DNA from: Panicum virgatum
Lineage: Eukaryota > Streptophyta > Magnoliopsida > Poales > Poaceae
Reading direction: 5' to 3'
DNA length: 64,000 nt
Assembly (NCBI RefSeq): GCF_016808335.1
Contig: NC_053148.1
Coordinates: forward strand, 12,815,433-12,879,432
Made by a program: the position numbers and the translations under genes. Of the stretch, positions 27,797 to 48,055 are shown piece by piece; the stretch's first letter is position 1, and every line of letters starts with the position of its first letter. A model generated the notes under the pieces. It did no database searches, was not told the origin of the DNA, and saw only the letters and a list, made by a program, of their open reading frames with translations.

Positions 27797-28365
27797 GAGT
27801 GGTATCAGAGCCATATCGACTGTAGGACGAAGCCTAGATAGAACTGGTCGAGTTTTAGGACTTCTTCTCTCCAATCCTTGTCTGCTGAAACTATTTTACT
27901 ATTATACTCCTTGAATTCTATGACTTTTACTCGTCTTGCCTTGATTTCTCCCTCTAAAGAATAGTTTTCGTAGATTTTGGCCCGAATCAGTCATCTGACC
28001 ACCATGAGTAAACTAGGTTACCCTTTTATAATAATACGATAGCACGTTCTGCGACGCGTTGTGTTAGTCGAGTCGTATGTTAAACTCGGCTAAGTCGTGA
28101 AAATTGTCTGCATGTTATTATGCTACATGTTTGATTTGAATTTTTGAATGATTGCATAGCTTAGTAGTTTAAATTTGTTTAAAGAAAATCACTCTTAGGT
28201 TAAGTTAACTAATTAATAAAATAGATTAGATCGTAGGGGGTAAAACAGTCCACTCTATCCTGTCTACTTTATCATGGCTGAGTCTTTTTCCGCAAAGAGT
28301 TATCATATCCATCTAAATTTATTCTTGCAATATCCTTACTCGTGAAATCTTTTGTCCATAATCAG

Positions 28366-36815: not shown

Positions 36816-36837
36816 TTATATGAATGACACTAACTCC

Positions 36838-38959
36838 TGAAAGTGCATCTAGGCCCCTAGTGTGTTTTGGTGGATTGATTGACACCACGATTAAAAAACT
36901 AACCATCTTGTTGAGTATATGAGCAGAAATTGATTATCATATTTATTATATATGCGATGAAATGTATCAATGTTCAAGACAAAACTCATATAACAAGATG
37001 AATGCCACAACATGATCTAGTATGAGAATGATAACAAGCAATGAGTATTGTGTGAATTGGGATATGTGTTATTGGTGAGGAATTCACTCCCATATCTAAA
37101 TGAAGCTTGTTGAAGTATGTGGTACTCAAAATAACAAGTCAAGGTATTGAGAATGAGACAAGGTTGTATGCTTATGCATAGTCTCATATATTGGAAAAAT
37201 TATCATAATAATTGCAAGTGATATTTGATGATCAAGCAAGTATGAAAGAAATGGTTTTCATTATAATGTAAAAATTATTGTGAGTTCAAGAGGGCTCTTG
37301 AGAATAAATGGATGGGATCGAAAGGCGAGTTTCTAGAGGCTATGTAAGCAAAGGCTTGGCATGAGCAAGGAAACCGATAATGATCAAGTCCAAGAATTCT
37401 AAGAGATAAGGAGAATTTCACATTGAGAAGCATTATTCATTAGAAGAAGAAAAATAGCTTGAGGATCAAAATGGATTTCATTGTAAGTTAAATGTGATAT
37501 AAGCCTACATGAAGGTATATGTGATGCAAGGATGAAGAGTTGGAATTCGGGAATGGGTTTCTAGGTACTAAGCTTGGAGAAGGGCAATTGTGGTTGTGCC
37601 AAGGAACCAATGCTATGGTGACAAAACGTTCTTTGGGTTCAACTTAAAGAATCTTGATCATGTGTGGTGTTCATGTTGGCAAGTATTAATCTTTCTAGAA
37701 TCTAATTGTGAAGACGGTGACTTTAACTAGAAGTGGATTTCATTCAAGGATAAAAGTTCAAGGTCACTAGCTCAAGGAAGATGTGCTCAAAGTAAAGAAG
37801 CCAAGTTGGATGCACACCTCAGATTGTGATTGATCAACACACGACATAGGATGAAAAAGTGAAGCTCAAGAAGTTGAAATGTAATTTATCTTTGATCTTG
37901 AGTTTATGTATCCCGTACTATCAAGAGGGATGCATCACAATGGTCTTTGGTTTAGTTTCAGTGCTCAAGTAACCCATGTGAGTTGAAAGAGACAAAAGGC
38001 TCACGTACACATTTTAACATTGCTGCTAGGGCAAATCCGGAAGTTTCGGATTTGGAATCCGGAAGTTCCGGATTTGGCACACGTGGCACTAACAGCTAGT
38101 TGGTTTGAAAACCCGGAGGTTCCGGGTTGTAGAATCCGGAAGTTCCGGGTTCTAACTGTCACATAACGGCTAGTTTTGTTGGGACCGGCTATTTATACCC
38201 CTTAGCCCTCTCCTTGGTGGGCTGATGTTCCAGACTTTATTCTATTCATTGATGGTAGTCCCAAGAAGCTTGGTAGCCATAGTTGAGCTCTCCCCAACCT
38301 CTCTTTGTGAGATTGTGTGATTAGTATATATCCTTGAGATGGGTTGAGAGAGTGAATGCGTGAGAGCACTAGAGAGCACATAAAACCTTGAGCACTTGAG
38401 ATTAGCCATGATTTGTGGTGAGCAGCGACAAGTTTATTGCAGCACCGATCTTGTGCCACGAGGGCTCATGGTCATATAGTTGAAGGAGGAAATAGCTTGA
38501 CCTTGGGGTCGATATAAGCTTCCTCAACGGAGACTAGGATTCACACATGGGTGCACGGGGTGAATCTGAACTTCGGTAAAACAAATCCTTGTGTTCATTG
38601 CATTTACATTTGTTTTGTGGATTTGAGGAGCTCTCCATTAGAAACTTGTGTCTTGGAGATATTGTTGTTTCGTATGTGCAGGATCTGCGTGAACCTGCTC
38701 AAAGAACTTCTCTGAGCAGACTCTACAATTGGGGTTTGAATTTACATTCATTTATTAGCACTACTCTTATTGTGTTCACTCTGTTATGAGTGAACTCGGA
38801 AGTTCCGGATTAACAAACCCGGAAGTTCCAAGTTCACCTACTGTCTAGTCCAAATCAAGTTCCGGGTTTGGCAGACAGTCAATTTTATCTGCTGCGTTTG
38901 AGTGAAACTATGTAGGTGCACCTATTCATCCCCCTCTAGGCGACATCAAGGTCCTCTCA
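36838..38959 (+). repeat. 5' LTR of the Copia-type element
   Basis: 2,122 bp. It carries three pairs of the 19-bp motif (38034/38056, 38110/38133, 38793/38816) plus a half copy ending at 38868. It is 18 bp shorter than the 3' LTR, mainly because part of the fourth pair is missing. Confidence 0.9.
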
Positions 38960-39011
38960 ATTGGTATCAGAGCCTAACTTCACATCAAAGCTTAACCGCC
39001 GTGAAGAAATA

Positions 39012-40850
39012 ATGTCGACGTCCTATGAGGTACCCATTGAGCCGCTTGTAAGTGATGGCTCAAATTATGCTTTCTGGTCCATTAATGTTCAAAATCATTT
39101 GCGGAATCTTGGTCCACTTGTGGAACGAGTTGTAGTTGCAAGTATCATTCCTCCAAATTTTAGTTGGAAAAATGTTGACATAACAAACAAAAGGGAAATG
39201 GATTGCATGCAACTCAACGCGTTAGTCCCTGATTATTTGCTGAGTGTTGTATGTGCAGAAATTAGTGATATCATTCTTGAGAATGAAGAAATGCGAGAAA
39301 ACGCATATCTCATTTGGAAATTTCTCAAGAATCTTTATGACAAAAATTGCTCAGTATCATCAGTAACAAGCACAGCTCATCAAGAATCATCTGTCAAGAG
39401 TCAGGAAAACAAAGATTCAAAAGGCATTGACTCAACTCCAAAAATTTCAGCAAACCCGGAAGTTCCGGATTCAGAACCCGGAAGTTCCGGATTGGAGAAT
39501 AATGCTGAAATATATCAATCAGATGATGAATCAGCCTCTAATTGTTCTGCTCAATCACATTATGGACATCATCAGTGCTTTATGGCCACAGCTGAAGACA
39601 ATTCAGATTCAGATATTGATAGTGGTAGTGATTGTGATAGTGATGATGATGACGAGGAGCCAGTGCTTGAACTTAGAAAAGTAAGCAAGAAGAGCAGGGA
39701 AACAATTTTTGGGCTGATGAAAAAGGTGATGAAGCAAGATCAAGAAATAAAGAAACAAAAGAAGGTTCTCAACAAAAAGGATGATGAAATCAAATGTCTT
39801 GCTCTAGTAGAAGAGAGAAATCATGCCCTCAAGACTGAATTGGATGAGCTTACTAGCAAGCATATGGACCTTCAAAATCTGCATCAGAAACTCAAGTGCT
39901 CCAATGACCAACTTGTGGATTCATTTGTCAATCTAGAAGTTGCTCATGAGGTCATAGTTACAATGGTGAAATCATACAAGCAAATTGACAACACTTGCTC
40001 ACAAAATGAGAACAAAGAGAAACAATCTTGGTATAAACAAGTGATCGTGGAAGATTGCAATGATGACCTCGCCCTAGAAAATGAAGTGCTCAAGCAAGAG
40101 GTTGAGAGGCTCTCACAAGACTTATCAAAATTAAAAGGCAAGAGTGTTGTGCAACCTTCTCAAGATAACCGTGAAACCATGGTGAAGAAGTTTGAGAAGG
40201 GGTCCACCGTGCAAAACTCATGCAAACTTATACTCAAGTCAAAGGAGAGCAAGTCTCAAGCAAGGAAGAAAAATATGGATCATATTAAGTGCTACAAAAG
40301 CTCCAACGTGGGACTTTATGCCTCAGTGTGCTCAATCAAAATAGAAGGCCAGCAAACCCTCTCCAAGAGACAAAGAAGCCTTGCCAAAAGAAGATGTTTT
40401 GGCTGCTGCAAAATGGGACACAGAATTGCAACTTGCCCAGACAAGTCAAGCAAACCCGGAAGTTCCGGATGGTACAACCCGGAAGTTCCGGTTTTGAAAT
40501 CACAACGGCACTTCAAGCCAAACAAAGGTTTCAAGAGAGCTCAAGAAAAATACTTGGAGAGGGAAGCAGTTAAAGGCAATAAGAACAATCCATCAAGCAA
40601 CATCAAGCACAAAGTTTGCTATACATGTCGAGAAAAAGGACATCTTGGTAAGGATTGTCCAAACGGTAACTCTCCTAAACCAAACTTGATCAACAATGTA
40701 CCTTTATGCTATAGTAGACCTTCAAATGGTGTTGGTGCTGGTAGGATGATGAGTTCATCAACTACTCGCCCAAGAGCCATTTGGGTTCCCAAATCTTTGT
40801 TGACTAACCTTCGTGGACCTAACTTGGCTTGGGTACCAAAATGTGCTTGA
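39012..40850 (+). CDS. Copia-type gag with two CCHC zinc knuckles
   Basis: The most likely start is the ATG at 39012 (MSTSYEVPIEPLV), giving about 612 residues; the frame is open upstream to 38961. The N-terminal half resembles the Copia capsid (SDGSNYAFWSINVQNHLRNL, AYLIWKFLKNLYDK). Then come an acidic stretch (SDSDIDSGSDCDSDDDDEE), a long coiled coil (about residues 225-385), a knuckle C-F-G-C-C-K-M-G-H-R-I-A-T-C and a second, canonical one C-Y-T-C-R-E-K-G-H-L-G-K-D-C. It ends with repeated WVPK motifs (RAIWVPK, LAWVPK), where SIRE-type polyproteins continue into protease, but here there is a stop. It forms virus-like particles and binds RNA in related elements. Two pairs of the 19-bp motif lie in the frame, giving NPEVPDSEPGSSG and KPGSSGWYNPEVP. 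Confidence 0.85.
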   Translation: MSTSYEVPIEPLVSDGSNYAFWSINVQNHLRNLGPLVERVVVASIIPPNFSWKNVDITNKREMDCMQLNALVPDYLLSVVCAEISDIILENEEMRENAYLIWKFLKNLYDKNCSVSSVTSTAHQESSVKSQENKDSKGIDSTPKISANPEVPDSEPGSSGLENNAEIYQSDDESASNCSAQSHYGHHQCFMATAEDNSDSDIDSGSDCDSDDDDEEPVLELRKVSKKSRETIFGLMKKVMKQDQEIKKQKKVLNKKDDEIKCLALVEERNHALKTELDELTSKHMDLQNLHQKLKCSNDQLVDSFVNLEVAHEVIVTMVKSYKQIDNTCSQNENKEKQSWYKQVIVEDCNDDLALENEVLKQEVERLSQDLSKLKGKSVVQPSQDNRETMVKKFEKGSTVQNSCKLILKSKESKSQARKKNMDHIKCYKSSNVGLYASVCSIKIEGQQTLSKRQRSLAKRRCFGCCKMGHRIATCPDKSSKPGSSGWYNPEVPVLKSQRHFKPNKGFKRAQEKYLEREAVKGNKNNPSSNIKHKVCYTCREKGHLGKDCPNGNSPKPNLINNVPLCYSRPSNGVGAGRMMSSSTTRPRAIWVPKSLLTNLRGPNLAWVPKCA

Positions 40851-42621
40851 AAGAATTAGCAGGTACTCAGAGATGCATTGTGGACTTGGCGAACATGAGA
40901 AGAGCTTCACCTCAATATCATTGTCCAAAGTTCATCTAGAAAATCGCCAAGTTGAACTCAAACCGATCCATCATTCCAATGCATCTCCGATAACATGTAC
41001 ATCTTCCTTGTGCTAATCAAGTTCTTAAATTTAAGATTGCTTTGTGTAATTTCAAATAAAAGGGATTGATTAGCTCACTTTGTTAATTTGTAAAATATAT
41101 GCAATTATCAATTGTGGTGCTCTTAACAAGCTCTTTGGTGGAGCTAGTGCTTTAGTAACATTACAGGAGCATCTACAAGTATTGAAGATTCAAGAAAGAT
41201 CAAGAATTCATGGATTACCTTCAGTCAAGAAAGTCCGATAAACCCGGAAGTTCCAGATTTTACAACCCGGAAGTTCCGGATTTTCAAAAGAATCACTGTT
41301 GAGTAATATCTGTGGACAGACAGTAGCGACGACTTGATTTCTACATTACTCAAGGGACTGTGAGTTTATTCTTGACCTACTCTATATTCTAGACATATTT
41401 CTTGATTAGTTGACCAAGATATGAAATGAGTATCCTAAAGTGTCTTTATTGATCACAAGTGCATATCTCAAGAATTCTATCCTTGATGCACTTATTTAGG
41501 GGGAGCTTATTTCATATTGTGTGTCTTGCTACTAACCTTACTTTCAAGGCTTCATGTGTGTAGAAAACATATACATGATCACAAGGGTAATATGCTTCAC
41601 TATGAGTATGCCACTTGACTTCAAGGTCACCAATCCAACTTGAAAAAGGTGTATCTAAACTCAAAATTGGATTGATTATCACTTTGTGTGGCTGCTCTCC
41701 ATAATATGGCTTAAGTTTCTCATTTGGTCTTAATCGACCAAAAGATGCACATATACTTGCCTCCACATACATGTATGCATTATTCACTCTTGAGAAACTT
41801 AGTCCATGTTATGAGGCTTTACTGCTTGACGATTCATTGCCTTCCACATTTAAAGAATCATCAAGCACAAAGCTAGGGTTTGTACTACTAATGTGATTTA
41901 TTTGGACTTCTAAGCTTTTCATGATTAATCGAATGAAAAGAGTTCAAGTTATGTTTATAATGATTATGTGCAAGTCATGTATGTGAGATCCTTCTCTTGT
42001 GAAGGACATGGAACCTAAAGGGCCAAGGTATGATTTATTAGGGTCAAGTATTTATGATTTGCATCTAGGCCCTCTACATGCTAGTGTGTGCATGTTTTGT
42101 ATCAAGTAATTCAATGTCATTTAGTGTAACTTTAAATATTTGGTTGATACCTTCTTTTGAGATTGAATTAGTGTCAATAGAACTAAATTGTTGTGAGGTA
42201 TGAGCCAAATATACTAAGGACGGTGCTTGACTTGAGTTACTAGATATATGAGTGTTATAGGTTAGATTTTTCGAAAACCCAACTAGTATGCTAGGTTGTA
42301 AGCTGTTTGGAAACTTTTGGTTCTTGGTCTTTGTGACCATGTCAAGTTGCCTTGTGGTTATAGTTACACTTGTTTGATTGTTGGCTAACACAAAGCAACA
42401 AGACACTCTCAAGTCCATAGGATCTATTCCAATCTCATCTCAAGGGCTATATTCTTTGGAAATGCTATCTCTCATCAAATGCAAGCCTAGGTTCCTATTT
42501 CAAATGGATATCTAAGACAAAGGAACCAAAATATCAAAATCTTTCTCTGGTCAAGGCTCTCTCATCTAGAAATCAAACTCTATCAACACTTTTGAGATAT
42601 TTTGCCCAATTTTGAGAATAG

Positions 42622-42757
42622 TCCGGGTTCTCTGGGTTTCAGCCCGGATTCTCTAGGGTGGCCCGGATACTCTGGCTTTTCTCCCGGATTCTCTGGGTTT
42701 CAGCCCGGATACTCTGGGGTGGCCCGGATACTCTGGTTTTTCTCCCGGATTCTCTGG
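42622..42757 (+). repeat. Short tandem array, unit CCCGGATTCTCTGG, period 19-21 bp
   Basis: Seven copies of (C)CCGGAT(T/A)CTCTGG start at 42622, 42643, 42662, 42683, 42704, 42723 and 42744, linked by alternating GTTTCAG and GGTGG or TTTTTCT spacers. The block lies in the non-coding interior of the Copia-type element just before a pair of 19-bp motifs. It shares their CCGGA half-site. Confidence 0.85.
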
Positions 42758-43544
42758 AGTTTACCCAGTACAGCAGTAAACCCGGAAATTCCGAGTTTGT
42801 AACCCGGAACTTCCGGATTTAGTGGGTAAAAATATTCACCACCAAAGTTCTAAAAAATTTCCATGGATATATTTGTTCCAAAAATTTTACGGATATCTAA
42901 GAAGTTGGAACTCACATTTATCTCGGACAAATTCTCCAATATCAAGTCTTGACCGAGGGGTAATGTGAAACCCGAAAGTTCCGGATTTCAACTGGTATAT
43001 CACTATTCAGCCCGTGATTTACCCTTTCACCTCTCATTCCCTCTCCCACTCACTGCTCGACACAAACACAGTTCGGGAGAGGCGATTTTGGGGCGATTCG
43101 GCCATTTGATCAAGGATTTCAAGGATTGAAGGGCGGCTCTTGGTGATTACAATCCAGAGGTTTCGGATCCATCTTCCGGAATCAATTTCAAACCCTTCCC
43201 ACCATGAGCAACGGCACAAAATCAATCTTTTTGCCCGATCTCTTTACCTAGGATTGATCTGTTCGATTCCTTTGGTAGGGCACCTACATTTAGACCATAG
43301 TTGTTATCCCTAGCAAAAGAATCATGTTTACTTGGTCGATTTAGATGATACTCGAATGTACGGTTTTCTGGGCAAACCCGGAAGTTCCGGGTTTCAAATC
43401 CGTAAGTTTCGGATTTACCCAGAAAACTGGAATCCAGCTCTGATCTTCCAAATTGTCGGTTTCTTTCACTCAAAATCATTCCTGTCCTAAATCCAAGGTT
43501 CCTCCTTTGTTTTCATAGATAATTCAGATGAGGAAAGGTTTGTT

Positions 43545-45368
43545 TTGAGGAGGAGGAGCAAAAATCCTAATGTTCCTATTGGGACAAGGAGATCCATGAG
43601 GCAACTTTCCAGAGGCACCTTGCACATTGCAGATGAGCCAGAGATTCAAGAGGAAAACAACACATCTAGTGATGATGGGGAGGAAAGTGATCCAAACTAT
43701 CAGGAATCACCTCCCCATGGGACAAAGAGGAGTGGTAGGCAAATGAGGGGCAGCAGTAGCAGTGGTGGCCATGGGATTAGCAGTGGTGGTGCTCAACTCG
43801 ATGATGATGATGAGGAGGAGGAAGAAGAAGAACATGTACAGCAGTCCAGTCAGCCACTCTTTGTGACTGGAGTCATGTTAAGAAAGCCAAGTGTTTCCCA
43901 TGACTATATCATGACTGATTACATGAAGAGGGGAATGATAGACAAAGTAAGAAAAGAAGGATTGAAGAATCCTTTGCGTGCTAAGAAAGGAAGAAGTGTT
44001 GATTATAGATTTCAAACCAAGTTCCATCAAGACTTCTATGTGAGTGCAATTCTTAGCAAGAAATACAAAGTGGCACGCTCTCAATTTATGAATTGGCCAA
44101 AACTTGAGAGCATGGGAGATCCAATCTTTAATGAGATCATTAGTGCATGCAAGGCTAAGCATATATACAAAATCATGGCATTTCAATATGATTGGAACAT
44201 TGAAGTGATTGCCCAATTTTATGCCACTTGCTATTTTGAAACACATGATGATATGAGATGGGTCCAGTGGATGACAGAGGGAAAATGGTATAAAATTAAT
44301 TATGTTGAGTTTGCAGCCATGTTTGGATTTGGGAGAGCTGATGCAGAAAGAGTTAGACTTCACCTTAGCTCTCCTCTCCCTAAAGAAGAAATGAAATGCA
44401 TGTACTTACCTAGTAGGGAGTCAGAGTTTGGGGGGGCCTAAAGGACTAATTCTATTTTATGCATATCTTAACAAGTTCTTTAGGAAGACACTTGCTACTA
44501 GAGAGGGTGATGCTCACAATATATCGTCATATGGAAAGAATTTGCTATATGCTTTAACTCCTAGCGAACCAGAGTTCAGTGTGTTTGATTACATATGGGA
44601 GCAAATCAAGTCCATATCTGAATCACCTCAAAAGTGTTGTGGTTTTGGAGCTTATCTCATGTTCCTGATTGATCAAAAGACCAACAAAAGATTTGAGTGT
44701 GATTACAAACTTCCTCCTTTGATGTTAAGATGGACTCACACCCCGGACCCACTCTTGCTGAAATTATTGCATCTAGAGAGCAAGCTGCAGCTCCAGGTGA
44801 TGGTGATACAGTCCCACATGCTCCTAGTGCCCCACATGTCCCTACTCGCTCCTATTCTAGGCGTGGTGGCTCTAGATCTCAAAATTGAGAAAAGCCTCCC
44901 TCTCCAATTAGAAAGATGTTCAATATGATTTTTGGGATGTGCAAGTCCACAAATGATGTGGTGCACAAGGAGAGGGAAAGGAGGAAGAAAGACACTTTGA
45001 GGCTAAACAAATTGCAAGAAGCCATATTGCCCAATGATCCTCCCTCACCCATTGGCTCAGAAGGACAGCAAAGTGAGCCTAAAACTATGGAGCAAATGAA
45101 TGCTAGATATCAGCAAGAAGATTATTGGGGGCAGCTCTATGGTAGTGGCACCACATCCTATGTTAACCCTACTTTTGTTGACCCCTCGACCGCTCCTTTC
45201 ATGCCTCAGACTCCTCAATTTCCACCAAAACCTCCTCCATATATTGCACCATCTTATGGGTTTGATGCCTTTGGCTCTTGGATGATTGATCAACCTATTG
45301 GTGATGCCGGCAAAGGGACTAACGGGCAAGGTGGAAGACAAGATGATGAGGATGATGATCAGCAGTAG
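43545..45368 (+). pseudogene. Second ORF of the Copia-type element (plant transposon protein type), frameshifted
   Basis: The frame is open upstream of 43545 to about 43516, where TTTTCATAG could be a splice acceptor. The first block has an Arg-rich start, an acidic serine-rich region (DDDDEEEEEEEH) and a conserved domain: RFQTKFHQDFYVSAILSKKY, AFQYDWNIEVIAQFYATCYF, MRWVQWMTEGKWYKINYVEF. This resembles the 'putative plant transposon protein' domain found in many uncharacterised grass retroelement ORFs. The frame shifts inside a G run (44430-44437), continues as LKGLILFYAYLNKFFRKTLA, shifts again near 44725, and passes a stop near 44888 before a Pro/Gln-rich tail ending in DDEDDDQQ. Role unknown; an accessory or envelope-position protein is conceivable. 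Confidence 0.65.
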
Positions 45369-45910
45369 AAGCTCCAGAAGAACTCCCCATAGACACTTCT
45401 TGGTGATGGATGACAAAGGGGAAGAAATTGTTGAAGATTAAAGCTTCTATTCAGATTTTAGTGGTTCTGGTCTGGCAAACCCGGAGGTTCCGGGTTTCCA
45501 AATCCGGAAGTGTGATAAAATATGATGAAATGATAATTTGTTGCTTTAGGCCAGTTCTGCCTGGCAAATCCGGAGGTTCCGTATTTGGAACCCGGAAGTT
45601 CCGGGCTTGTGTGGACATAACTGATCAGTTTATTTCATCTTGCTATTGTGTGAGATTTCTGTCATATGCATCATGTATTATATGTTCACACATGTATTTT
45701 GCACTCCATGGATGATGAGATTTAGGGAGAGCTCTTTGTTTTCTTGTGAACATGTGCAAAAGGGCATTTGAGGCCAAATTATTTGAATTCCATTCAATGC
45801 ACATTGTAAGGGGGAGCTCCTACTAAATCTAAAAATTCAAAACTTCAATTGATTATATCTTTTTGTAAGCTTTAATCGGTGTTGTCATCAGTCACCAAAA
45901 AGGGGGAGAT

Positions 45911-48050
45911 TGAAAGTGCATCTAGGCCCCTAGTGTGTTTTGGTGGATTGATTGACATCACGATTAAAGGACTAACCATCTTGTTGAGTATATGAGCAGA
46001 AATTGATTATCATATTTATTATATATGCGATGAAATGTATCAATGTTCAAGACAAAACTCATATGACAAGATGAATGCCACAACATGATCTAGTATGAGA
46101 ATGATAACAAGCAATGAGTATTGTGTGAATTGGGATATGTGTTATTGGTGAAGAATTCACTCCCATATCTAAATGAAGCTTGTTGAAGTATGTGGTACTC
46201 AAAATGACAAGTCAAGGTATTGAGAATGAGACAAGGTTGTATGCTTATGCATAGTCTCATATATTGGAAAAATTGTCATAAGAATTGCAAGTGATATTTG
46301 ATGATCAAGCAAGTATGAAAGAAATGGTTTTCATTATAATGTAAAAATCATTGTGAGTTCAAGAGGCCTCTTGAGAATAAATGGATGGGCACGAAAGGCG
46401 AGTTTCTAGAGGCTATGTAAGCAAAGGCTTGGCATGAGCAAGGAAACTGATAATGATCAAGTCCAAGAATTCTAAGAGATAAGGAGAATTTCACATTGAG
46501 AAGCATTATTCATTAGAAGAAGAAAAATAGCTTGAGGGTCAAAATGGATTTCATTGTAAGTAAAATGTGATACAAGCCTACATGAAGCTATATGTGATGC
46601 AAGGATGAAGAGTTGGAATTCGAGAATGGGTTTCTAGGTACTAAGCTTGGAGAAGGGCAATTGTGGTTGTGCCAAGGAACCAATGATATGGTGACAAAAT
46701 GTTCTTTGGGTTCAACTTGAAGAATCTTGGTCATGTGTGGTGTTCATGTTGGCAAGTATTAATCTTTCTAGAATCTTATTGTGAAGACAGTGACTTGAAC
46801 TAGGAGTGGATTTCATTCAAGGATAAAGGTTCAAGGCCACTAGCTCAAGGAAGATGTGCTCAAAGTAAAGAAGCCAAGTTGGATGCACACCTCAGATTGT
46901 GATTGATCAACACACGACATAGGATGAAAAAGTGAAGCTCAAGAAGTTGAAATGTAATTTATCTTTGATCTTGAGTTTAGGTATCCCGTACTATCAAGAG
47001 GGATGCATCACAATGGTCTTTGGTTTAGTCTCAGTGCTCAAGTAACCCATGTGAGTTGAAAGAGACACAAAAGCCTCACGTACACATTTTAACATTGCTG
47101 CTAGGGCAAATCCGGAAGTTCCGGATTTGGAATCCGGAAGTTCCGGATTTGGCACACGTGGCACTAACGGCTAGTTGGTTTGAAAACCCGGAGGTTCCGG
47201 GTTGTAGAATCCGGAAGTTCCGGGTTCTAACTGTCACATAACGGCTAGTTTTGTTGGGACCGGCTATTTATACCCCTTAGCCCCCTCCTTGGTGGGCTGC
47301 TGTTCCAGACTTTATTCTGTTCATTGCTGGTAGTCCCAAGAAGCTTGGTAGCCATAGTTGAGCTCTCCCCAACCTCTCTTTGTGAGATTGTGTGATTAGT
47401 ATATATCCTTGAGATAGGTTGAGAGAGTGAATGCGTGAGAGCACTAGAGAGCACATAAAACCTTGAGCACTTGAGATTAGCCATGATTTGTGGTGAGCAG
47501 CGGCAAGTTTGTTGTAGCACCGATCTTGTGCCACGAGGGCGCATGGTCATATAGTGGAAGGAGGAAATATCTTGACCTTGGGGTCGATATAAGCTTCCTC
47601 AACGGAGACTAGGATTCACACATGGGTGCACGGGGTGAATCTGAACTTCGGTAAAACAAATCCTTGTGTTCATTGCATTTACATTTGTTTTGTGGATTTG
47701 AGGATGTCTCCATTAGACACTTGTGTCTTGGAGATATTGTTGTTTCGTATGTGCAGGATCTGCGTGAACCTGCTCAAAGAACTTCTCTGAGCAGACTCTA
47801 CAATTGGGATTTGAATTTACATTCATTTATTAGCACTACTCTTATTGTGTTCACTCTGTTATGAGTGAACTCGGAAGTTCTGGATTGACAAACCCGGAAG
47901 TTTCGAGTTCACCTACTGTCTAGCCCAGTTCCGGATTTGAAACCCGGAAGTTCCGGGTTTGGCAAACAGTCAATTTTATCCGCTGCGTTTGAGTGAAACT
48001 TTGTAGGTGCGCCTATTCACCCCCCTCTAGGCGACATCAAAGTCCTCTCA
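45911..48050 (+). repeat. 3' LTR of the Copia-type element
   Basis: 2,140 bp and nearly identical to 36838-38959. It keeps four motif pairs, including a perfect AACCCGGAAGTTCCGGGTT at 47942. The last of these is partly deleted in the 5' LTR. Confidence 0.9.
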
Positions 48051-48055
48051 ACTCC

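What the first reader, a model, noticed from the sequence alone, without database searches (positions are those of the whole stretch)
38034..47960. Paired 19-bp palindromes spread through one Copia-type element
About 25 copies of AAYCCGGAAGTTCCGGRTT (9-base arms around a single G) lie in both LTRs, in gag and in the non-coding interior. Nearly every copy has a partner starting 22 or 23 bp away. Both the arms and the two-turn spacing are kept, and the variable positions co-vary (C with G, or T with A). This points to selection on DNA or RNA structure: a site for a dimeric protein, an RNA hairpin pair for dimerisation or packaging, or an element-specific silencing target. I know of no described plant retrotransposon feature like it. 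The function is inference; the repeats and spacing are directly visible.
Basis: seen in the sequence. Interest (0 to 1): 0.85.

Follow-up and report, generated by a model that had tools for sequence, protein, structure and literature searches.

The report
Paired, switchable palindromes in a retrotransposon
A switchgrass jumping gene carries a 19-letter mirror-image DNA motif, mostly in closely spaced pairs; this type of motif has been known since 2010, but here it also sits inside a protein-coding gene, and related elements carry versions with different inner letters that are still symmetrical, which points to a partner molecule that evolves along with it.

Summary
In detail: 27 copies (0.03 expected), 24 of them in pairs 22 or 23 bp apart, inside a complete 11.2-kb LTR element (36838-48050, TSD ACTCC) in switchgrass. 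It has the marks of a Sirevirus (Copia); no pol was found. The palindrome is that genus's 'RM box' (CGG-CCG core; Bousios et al. 2010), with a core not in their table. The claimed arm covariation is absent: p=0.39 in the element, and 1 of 124 changed arm cells compensated among sister copies, which decay neutrally.

Comparison between families shows more. Thirty homologous switchgrass loci use CCGG-AAGTT-CCGG, CCGG-TCAGA-CCGG or CCGG-TGGCA-CCGG; no locus mixes types among its symmetrical cores. Pairs sit at two homologous places in gag: 22 bp apart in 21 of 30 loci, 23 bp in 28 of 30. At the second, two groups share 46% of flank, 96% of CCGG and 1% of inner letters, yet stay symmetrical. The 2010 paper reports RM boxes in LTRs, linker and the start of ENV, not in gag.

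Most likely they are paired sites for a dimeric DNA-binding factor whose specificity changes between families (inferred). An RNA hairpin or small-RNA target is the main rival.

The parts
36838..48050 (+). Whole LTR element: Sirevirus-type Copia in which no pol was found; TSD ACTCC at 36833-36837 and 48051-48055
   Evidence: LTR ends TG..CA, TSD, PBS and PPT
36838..38959 (+). 5' LTR (2122 bp)
   Evidence: 61 differences in 2122 aligned bases to the 3' LTR, K2P 0.029
45911..48050 (+). 3' LTR (2140 bp); keeps an RM half plus full copy (47919-47959) where the 5' LTR has a 16-bp deletion
38034..38151 (+). RM cluster in U3: pairs 38034/38056 and 38110/38133, ending 38 bp before a TATA-like box at 38190
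38793..38834 (+). RM pair near the 3' end of the 5' LTR (23 bp)
38958..38973 (+). 5' LTR/PBS junction CA-ATTGG-TATCAGAGC, identical to the published Sirevirus 16-mer
39012..40850 (+). gag reading frame (stop-to-stop frame opens at 38961); CCHC zinc knuckle PF00098
   Evidence: relatives in Panicum virgatum
39453..39493 (+). RM pair, gag site 1 (22 bp); the two copies are read in different frames (NPEVPD.. / EPGSSG)
40453..40494 (+). RM pair, gag site 2 (23 bp), just after a zinc-knuckle-like motif; different frames (KPGSSG / NPEVP)
41241..41282 (+). RM pair after gag (23 bp)
42619..42763 (+). Tandem array (61-bp unit, about 20-bp sub-period) of CCCGGATNCTCTGGG-like units, possibly degenerate RM copies
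   Evidence: relation to the RM is inference
42779..43415 (+). RM copies upstream of the interior ORF: pair 42779/42801, single 42969, pair 43375/43397
43545..45368 (+). Interior ORF region in the place of the Sirevirus ENV-like gene; broken into several frames here; relatives in Panicum miliaceum
   Evidence: no Pfam match at E<=0.01
45478..45607 (+). RM copies after the interior ORF: 45478 with truncated partner, pair 45567/45589
45901..45908 (+). Terminal polypurine tract AGGGGGAG, 10 bp before the 3' LTR, followed by AT/TG; further octamers in the element at 41498 and 45809
47109..47226 (+). RM cluster in U3 of the 3' LTR: 47109/47131 and 47185/47208
47868..47959 (+). RM copies near the end of the 3' LTR: 47868/47891 and 47941 with half partner at 47919

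Best explanation
The palindromes are the RM boxes of a Sirevirus retrotransposon. Shown: most are dyad-symmetric sites with a CCGG..CCGG frame and family-specific inner letters, used mostly as a pair about two DNA turns apart, in U3 just before a TATA-like box, near the LTR end, at two homologous places in gag, after gag and around the interior ORF. Inferred: each palindrome binds a dimer (one half-site per monomer), a pair binds two dimers on one face of the DNA, and the bound factor controls transcription or silencing of the element. The inner two bases of each half-site set which factor, or which version of it, binds. When specificity changes, the element's copies are replaced together, by selection plus copying between boxes within the element. 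Whether the factor is host-made (LOB-domain proteins are a lead) or element-made is open.
For: Sequence-blind scan of 30 homologous loci for repeated 13-bp palindromes at spacings 14-60: 81 of 112 hits at 22 or 23 bp; none in 5 mononucleotide shuffles. Exact 17-mers in the genome: among the 100 listed places (of 865), all 16 neighbours under 76 bp apart are at 22 or 23. 30 of 30 loci hold one symmetrical type, 0 mixed; 135 symmetrical cores, plus 21 asymmetric cores in 16 loci left unassigned. Of 12 stretches fetched 5' of gag, 10 hold the type of their gag, 0 another, 2 none. Types map on a gag tree with two changes. At gag site 2 (28 of 30 loci): flanks 45-49% identical between groups, CCGG 86-96%, inner letters 0-1% between the AAGTT and TCAGA types and 88% between two deep TCAGA clades. 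In 142 protein relatives, inner pair 1/5 is complementary in 64 of 72 determined pairs at 22/23, v 13 of 85 at other spacings and 14 of 57 in shuffles. The U3 cluster ends 38 bp before a TATA-like box, as in the published layout.
Against: No binding factor is identified. No covariation inside this element. Within the family RMs are no more conserved than flanks (minority frequency 0.040 v 0.039, 0.057 v 0.038, 0.029 v 0.034). Most pairs also fold well as RNA. Copies inside gag and after the ORFs are not promoter-like. In coding DNA the spacing may be kept by the reading frame and by descent. At U5 and after gag, 9 of 30 loci each had a weak best pair or one at another spacing.
Confidence: 0.5

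Rival explanations
1. RNA structure: the two copies of a pair fold on each other into one 19-bp hairpin with a 3-4 nt loop, used for dimerisation or packaging, or cut by host Dicers into small RNAs that silence the element.
For: 8 of 9 pairs fold as one long hairpin; z from -2.9 to -7.7 against mononucleotide shuffles, and with 25-nt flanks -1.9 to -7.4 against dinucleotide shuffles in 11 units. Flanks of 3 of 11 units extend the hairpin (permutation p=0.009, one of three structure tests). In maize Sireviruses small RNAs map to palindrome clusters (passages in PMC10760457 and PMC5311732 citing Bousios 2016).
Against: C-A mismatch at pair 3/17 in 9 of 27 copies, partner complementarity no better than permuted (p=0.83), 1 compensated of 124 changed cells among sister copies. 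A hairpin would tolerate loops above 4 nt, yet spacings of 24-30 are nearly absent (2 of 112). Direct repeats of a palindrome fold on each other whatever their use.
Confidence: 0.27
2. Neutral repeat: a minisatellite-like unit spread by duplication, with spacing kept by descent and no function.
For: Within the family arms mutate independently and RMs are not more conserved than flanks; 76 of the arm changes in 124 changed cells are C to T or G to A. Units are gained or lost whole: at gag site 2 one copy of 28 gained and one lost exactly 23 bp. The centre base is G in 25 of 27 copies and a short left flank is partly shared, so the copies are probably related by descent.
Against: Symmetrical inner letters of different type at homologous sites in different groups, with flanks near saturation, and 88% inner-letter identity between two deep TCAGA clades where flanks are 45% (gag site 2; at gag site 1 the same comparison is 94% v 75%).
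Confidence: 0.08
3. An element-encoded DNA-binding anti-silencing factor recognises the boxes, as VANC proteins do in VANDAL transposons.
For: VANC binds short motifs that are dense in its own element and evolve together with it (PMC5735166, passages). Here too the motif is family-specific and uniform within an element.
Against: No DNA-binding domain found: in the ORFs and relatives tested, Pfam at its cut-off sees only the CCHC of Gag. The interior ORF is broken in this copy, and RM boxes occur in Sireviruses without ENV (Table 3). The structure model of a relative of the interior ORF was too poor to use.
Confidence: 0.15

Closest known systems
RM boxes of Sireviruses (Bousios et al. 2010, PMC2829016)
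   Same: Palindromic, CGG-CCG core, many copies, in the LTR just before the TATA box and upstream of the ENV-like gene; the switchgrass TCAGA type equals the published Osr8 core CGGTCAGACCG. The paper already notes element-specific cores and, for OPIE-2 v PREM-2, microdomains conserved amid diverged LTR sequence
   Different: Core CGGAAGTTCCG and the TGGCA type are not among the 13 in Table 3. Copies also lie inside gag and after gag, as pairs 22/23 bp apart at homologous places in different families; the Results, Discussion and Conclusions place RMs in LTRs, linker and at the start of ENV, and give no pair spacing (figures and supplements not seen)
Palindrome clusters of maize Sirevirus LTRs (Bousios et al. 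2016, not held; cited in PMC10760457 and PMC5311732)
   Same: Clustered CGG..CCG palindromes with hairpin potential
   Different: Other sequence (CACCGGACNNNGTCCGGTG), placed in LTRs in the passages seen; small-RNA mapping not testable here
VANDAL/VANC motif system (PMC5735166)
   Same: Works alike: element-specific short motif repeated through one element and changing in concert between families
   Different: DNA transposon, 9-base motif mainly in non-coding DNA, known element-encoded binder; none known here
LOB-domain (LBD) transcription factor sites
   Same: Dimers that discriminate palindromic DNA by a 'molecular calipers' mechanism and bind GCGGCG (passages in PMC10118128); CGG half-sites as here
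   Different: No binding shown; the fit to CCGGAAGTTCCGG is a lead from memory, not a test

Membership tests
Sirevirus genus (Copia) | PPT octamer AGGGGGAG precisely 10 bp upstream of the 3' LTR | tested here: met
   45901, distance 10
Sirevirus genus (Copia) | AT/TG attachment site after the terminal PPT | tested here: met
   AGGGGGAGATTG at 45901, the only such 12-mer in the window
Sirevirus genus (Copia) | Several PPT copies (3-5) in the linker, clustered near the 3' LTR | tested here: met
   Octamers at 41498, 45809 and 45901; two of three within 0.5 kb of the 3' LTR
Sirevirus genus (Copia) | Inverted repeat bordering the PPT, right arm about 28 bp inside the 3' LTR | tested here: met
   Right arm starts at offset 27; score 35 v best of 500 shuffles 21
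Sirevirus genus (Copia) | 5' LTR/PBS junction CA/ATTGG/TATCAGAGC | tested here: met
   CAATTGGTATCAGAGC at 38958 (published motif)
Sirevirus genus (Copia) | C-rich integrase signal about 21 bp from the LTR end | tested here: inconclusive
   A CCCCCTCTAGG stretch lies about 20 bp from both LTR ends; the published alignment was not seen
Sirevirus genus (Copia) | Place in the Sirevirus clade by RT sequence | not testable with these tools
   No pol found: no Pfam match at the curated cut-off in 10 of 15 plus-strand ORFs of 45 aa or more over 40804-44441 (3 weak sub-threshold matches)
Sirevirus RM box | High-copy palindrome with CGG-CCG core | tested here: met
   27 copies, mostly CGG-N5-CCG
Sirevirus RM box | LTR copies upstream of a TATA box | tested here: met
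   Cluster 38034-38151, TATA-like 38190; but it starts about 1.2 kb into a 2.1-kb LTR, later than the published 200-400 bp, and there are more copies near the LTR end
Sirevirus RM box | Extra copies upstream of the ENV-like gene | tested here: met
   42779-43415 before the ORF at 43545; that the ORF is ENV-like rests on position only
Sirevirus RM box | RM clusters form predicted CpG islands | not tested
   Only GC content was profiled
LBD (LOB-domain) binding site | Bound by an LBD protein | not testable with these tools
   Lead only

The most novel reading that the evidence does not exclude
Grass Sireviruses carry an address code: paired palindromes at fixed places through LTR, gag and linker whose inner letters name the family. 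A binding factor, possibly encoded by the elements, reads the code and has repeatedly changed specificity, forcing replacement of every box in the element while dyad symmetry and two-turn spacing are kept, so that sister families in one genome are regulated or mobilised separately. The boxes inside gag would be coding sequence that is also regulatory DNA.
Probability: 0.3. Interest if true: 0.82.

Novelty: new variant of a known kind. Interest (0 to 1): 0.6.

Why it matters
RM boxes have no assigned reader in what I could see: their describers could not find a common binding site. Finding them as phased pairs at homologous places, with type switches between families in one genome, gives concrete bait (AAGTT, TCAGA and TGGCA pairs, spacing variants) to find the factor and to ask how plant retrotransposon families keep separate identities. 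Sireviruses make up 21% of the maize B73 genome (as stated in PMC10760457).

Tried and rejected
Rejected: covariation within the element; chance. No Rfam family at gathering threshold. Spread outside plants was not supported: exact singles lie in 27 viral stretches, about what chance gives by my own estimate, and no gag relative was confirmed in viral contigs. The 63 generic-pair viral stretches, 21 bacterial places and the one PBS match were not examined.
Led nowhere: structure of a P. miliaceum relative of the interior ORF (pLDDT 49.6), so no fold search was run; Bousios 2016 and two LBD papers are not held; motif searches for LBD gave nothing usable.
Limits: one search keeps only loci whose pair scores 21 of 26 or more at 22/23 (21 of 30 at gag site 1, 28 of 30 at site 2), which lifts RM identity there; at gag site 1 two loci scored best at spacing 18 and seven were too low; at site 2 one at 28 and one low. 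At U5, 6 low and 3 at other spacings of 30; after gag, 5 low and 4 other of 30. The two TGGCA loci are not in the identity figures. The three types were defined. In one search three proteins are counted in two registers and many rows are close relatives, so about four types stand behind the 73 pairs. Back-translated inner letters assume the two copies of a pair agree; 14 of 73 rows did not. At perfect score spacing 32 also has 9 pairs; one search shows them at 23-bp pair sites with a further CCGG-compatible stretch (8 begin 9 nt before a 23-bp pair, 1 at its start). Stretches were taken as the LTR side without checking LTR ends. One search listed 120 of 317 relatives; one search gave loci for 30 of 78 matches; for 30 of 40.
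Full report
What is there. The window comes from switchgrass: close gag relatives are Panicum virgatum proteins with PVAP13 tags, and contig lengths of the window's own assembly (69,011,629, 70,326,446, 56,040,097 and 62,386,477) equal those listed for PVAP13 2K, 2N, 8K and 5K proteins. The finding sits in one complete LTR element at 36838-48050, with a 5-bp target duplication ACTCC, LTRs of 2122 and 2140 bp and K2P distance 0.029 (about 1.1 million years at a rate of 1.3e-8 recalled from memory). It has a gag frame with a CCHC knuckle, no pol found (10 of 15 plus-strand interior ORFs of 45 aa or more searched in Pfam, none at the cut-off), and a broken interior ORF at 43545-45368 whose relatives are in Panicum miliaceum and in JGI and ENA contigs.

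The palindromes. 27 places match AAYCCGGAAGTTCCGGRTT with up to three mismatches, against 0.03 expected, all inside the element. 24 of 27 have a full partner 22 or 23 bp away. Both gag pairs put their two copies in different reading frames, so a DNA or RNA motif is repeated, not a peptide.

Already known kind. Bousios et al. 2010 (PMC2829016; I read the abstract, Results, Discussion and Conclusions and passages elsewhere, not figures or supplements) describe palindromic RM boxes with a CGG-CCG core in LTRs before the TATA box, upstream of the ENV-like gene and in two elements at its start, in 13 of 21 Sireviruses. The element meets the Sirevirus marks I could test: PPT octamer 10 bp before the 3' LTR, AT/TG, three PPT octamers, the inverted repeat bordering the PPT, and the LTR/PBS junction. 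The core CGGAAGTTCCG is not in their Table 3. They also note, for OPIE-2 and PREM-2, motifs kept amid diverged LTRs. Papers holding both 'sirevirus' and 'palindrom' number 13; I opened four of them (PMC2829016, PMC3414828, PMC5311732, PMC10760457; passages only for the last three). The listings (12 of 2,524 listed) showed no paper on RM pairs or RMs in gag; the library lacks most subscription papers, among them Bousios 2016.

Within the family: neutral decay. In 30, 28 and 25 copies (window included; 0, 2 and 5 of the 29 other loci missed) of the gag-1, gag-2 and U5 units, RM columns vary about as much as flanks. Of 124 changed arm cells, 113 break a pair, 3 restore one and 1 is compensated. 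The length of the unit is unchanged in 29 of 30, 26 of 28 and 22 of 25; at gag site 2 the two exceptions are exactly plus and minus 23 bp.

Between families: symmetry and place kept, letters switched. The 142 protein relatives are 121 from gag searches and 21 from the interior ORF. A search for CCGG-N5-CCGG pairs consistent with the peptides, with no assumption on the inner letters, gives 21 pairs at spacing 22 and 15 at 23 with a perfect score, out of 51 at spacings 13-60; shuffled proteins give 0.05 and 0 there and 1.85 in all. Spacing 32 has 9, which lie at the same 23-bp sites. At 15 of 16 or better there are 73 pairs at 22/23 in 55 proteins, with inner types AAGTT 26, TGGCA 9 and TCAGA or compatible 11, 13 rarer ones, and 14 whose copies disagree, several of which read as ACNGT. 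Position 1/5 is complementary in 64 of 72, against 13 of 85 at other spacings and 14 of 57 in shuffles; position 2/4 pairs or can pair in 53 of 61, against 62 of 90 at other spacings and 15 of 57 in shuffles, so that column is the weaker one. 41 of 73 lie within 45 residues after a zinc-knuckle-like motif, 15 before an HxCxM-like landmark, 17 elsewhere or unplaced. Named species among the hits with pairs include Eragrostis curvula (P0073) and Setaria italica (P0046, P0023).

DNA confirms it. Thirty of the 78 matches to a distant gag in the same genome were fetched and scanned for any repeated 13-bp palindrome: 81 of 112 hits are 22 or 23 bp apart, none in shuffles. By exact CCGG-N5-CCGG cores, 20 loci are TCAGA, 8 AAGTT, 2 TGGCA and 0 mixed; 135 cores are symmetrical, and 21 in 16 loci are asymmetric and unassigned. 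The TGGCA loci rest on one exact core each. On a tree of gag DNA without the RM pair, types form single groups with two changes; identity is 55-66% between types and as low as 64% within TCAGA. At gag site 2 (28 of 30 loci), two deep TCAGA clades share 45% of flank, 88% of CCGG and 88% of inner letters; AAGTT and TCAGA clade B share 46% of flank, 96% of CCGG and 1% of inner letters. At gag site 1 (21 of 30 loci) the same figures are 75, 91 and 94%, and 28, 90 and 1%. Of 12 stretches fetched 5' of gag, 10 hold symmetrical cores of the same type as their gag, 0 another type, 2 none. A 54-55 bp step between pairs is seen in AAGTT stretches (L191, L192, window) and in three TCAGA ones (L182, L183, L190); 44-45 bp steps occur in four (L181, L182, L187, L189).

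Mechanism. Kept outer CCGG, switchable inner letters, dyad symmetry and two-turn pairing are what a pair of dimer sites would show (inference). Independent C/T choice at position 3 of each half-site fits half-site recognition better than RNA pairing. The RNA rival stays: pairs fold as one long hairpin in 8 of 9 cases, and three of 11 units have matching flanks that extend it (p=0.009, one of three structure tests). In maize, small RNAs map to such clusters (as cited there). Spacing in gag may be kept by the reading frame, but the same 22/23 is found at non-coding sites, and the after-gag pair is 23 in 5 of 8 AAGTT loci and 22 in 12 of 14 TCAGA clade-B loci.

Verdict. A known kind of element feature in a new and informative form. 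Shown: existence, Sirevirus marks, pair spacing, gag copies, one symmetrical type per locus, different symmetrical types at homologous sites. Inferred: dimeric factor, function, direction of the switches, and how copies are replaced together.

Noticed in passing
window 27800-27811: A second TGGTATCAGAGC (PBS-like) on the + strand, probably another Copia element upstream.
   Followed up: no
L121 (G000:C13:13042052-13042252): A copy whose gag-1 region (201 bp) is 100% identical to the window lies about 187 kb further on the same contig: recent insertion or duplication.
   Followed up: no
window 42619-42763: Tandem array of CCCGGATNCTCTGGG-like units at about 20-bp steps, resembling decayed RM palindromes (TCCGGG to TCTGGG).
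   Followed up: partly
window 43375-43415 with flanks, 42779-42819, 39453-39493: Flanks of these three RM pairs are themselves inverted repeats that lengthen the possible hairpin.
   Followed up: partly
window 38075-38092: A CACGTG (G-box-like) site directly after the U3 RM pair (sequence; the label is recalled).
   Followed up: no
L091, L100, L101, L108 and L095, L103, L104: The same CCGGAAGTTCCGG pair occurs on four contigs of one Polyangiaceae MAG and three of one Clostridiales MAG; probably unrelated bacterial repeats.
   Followed up: no
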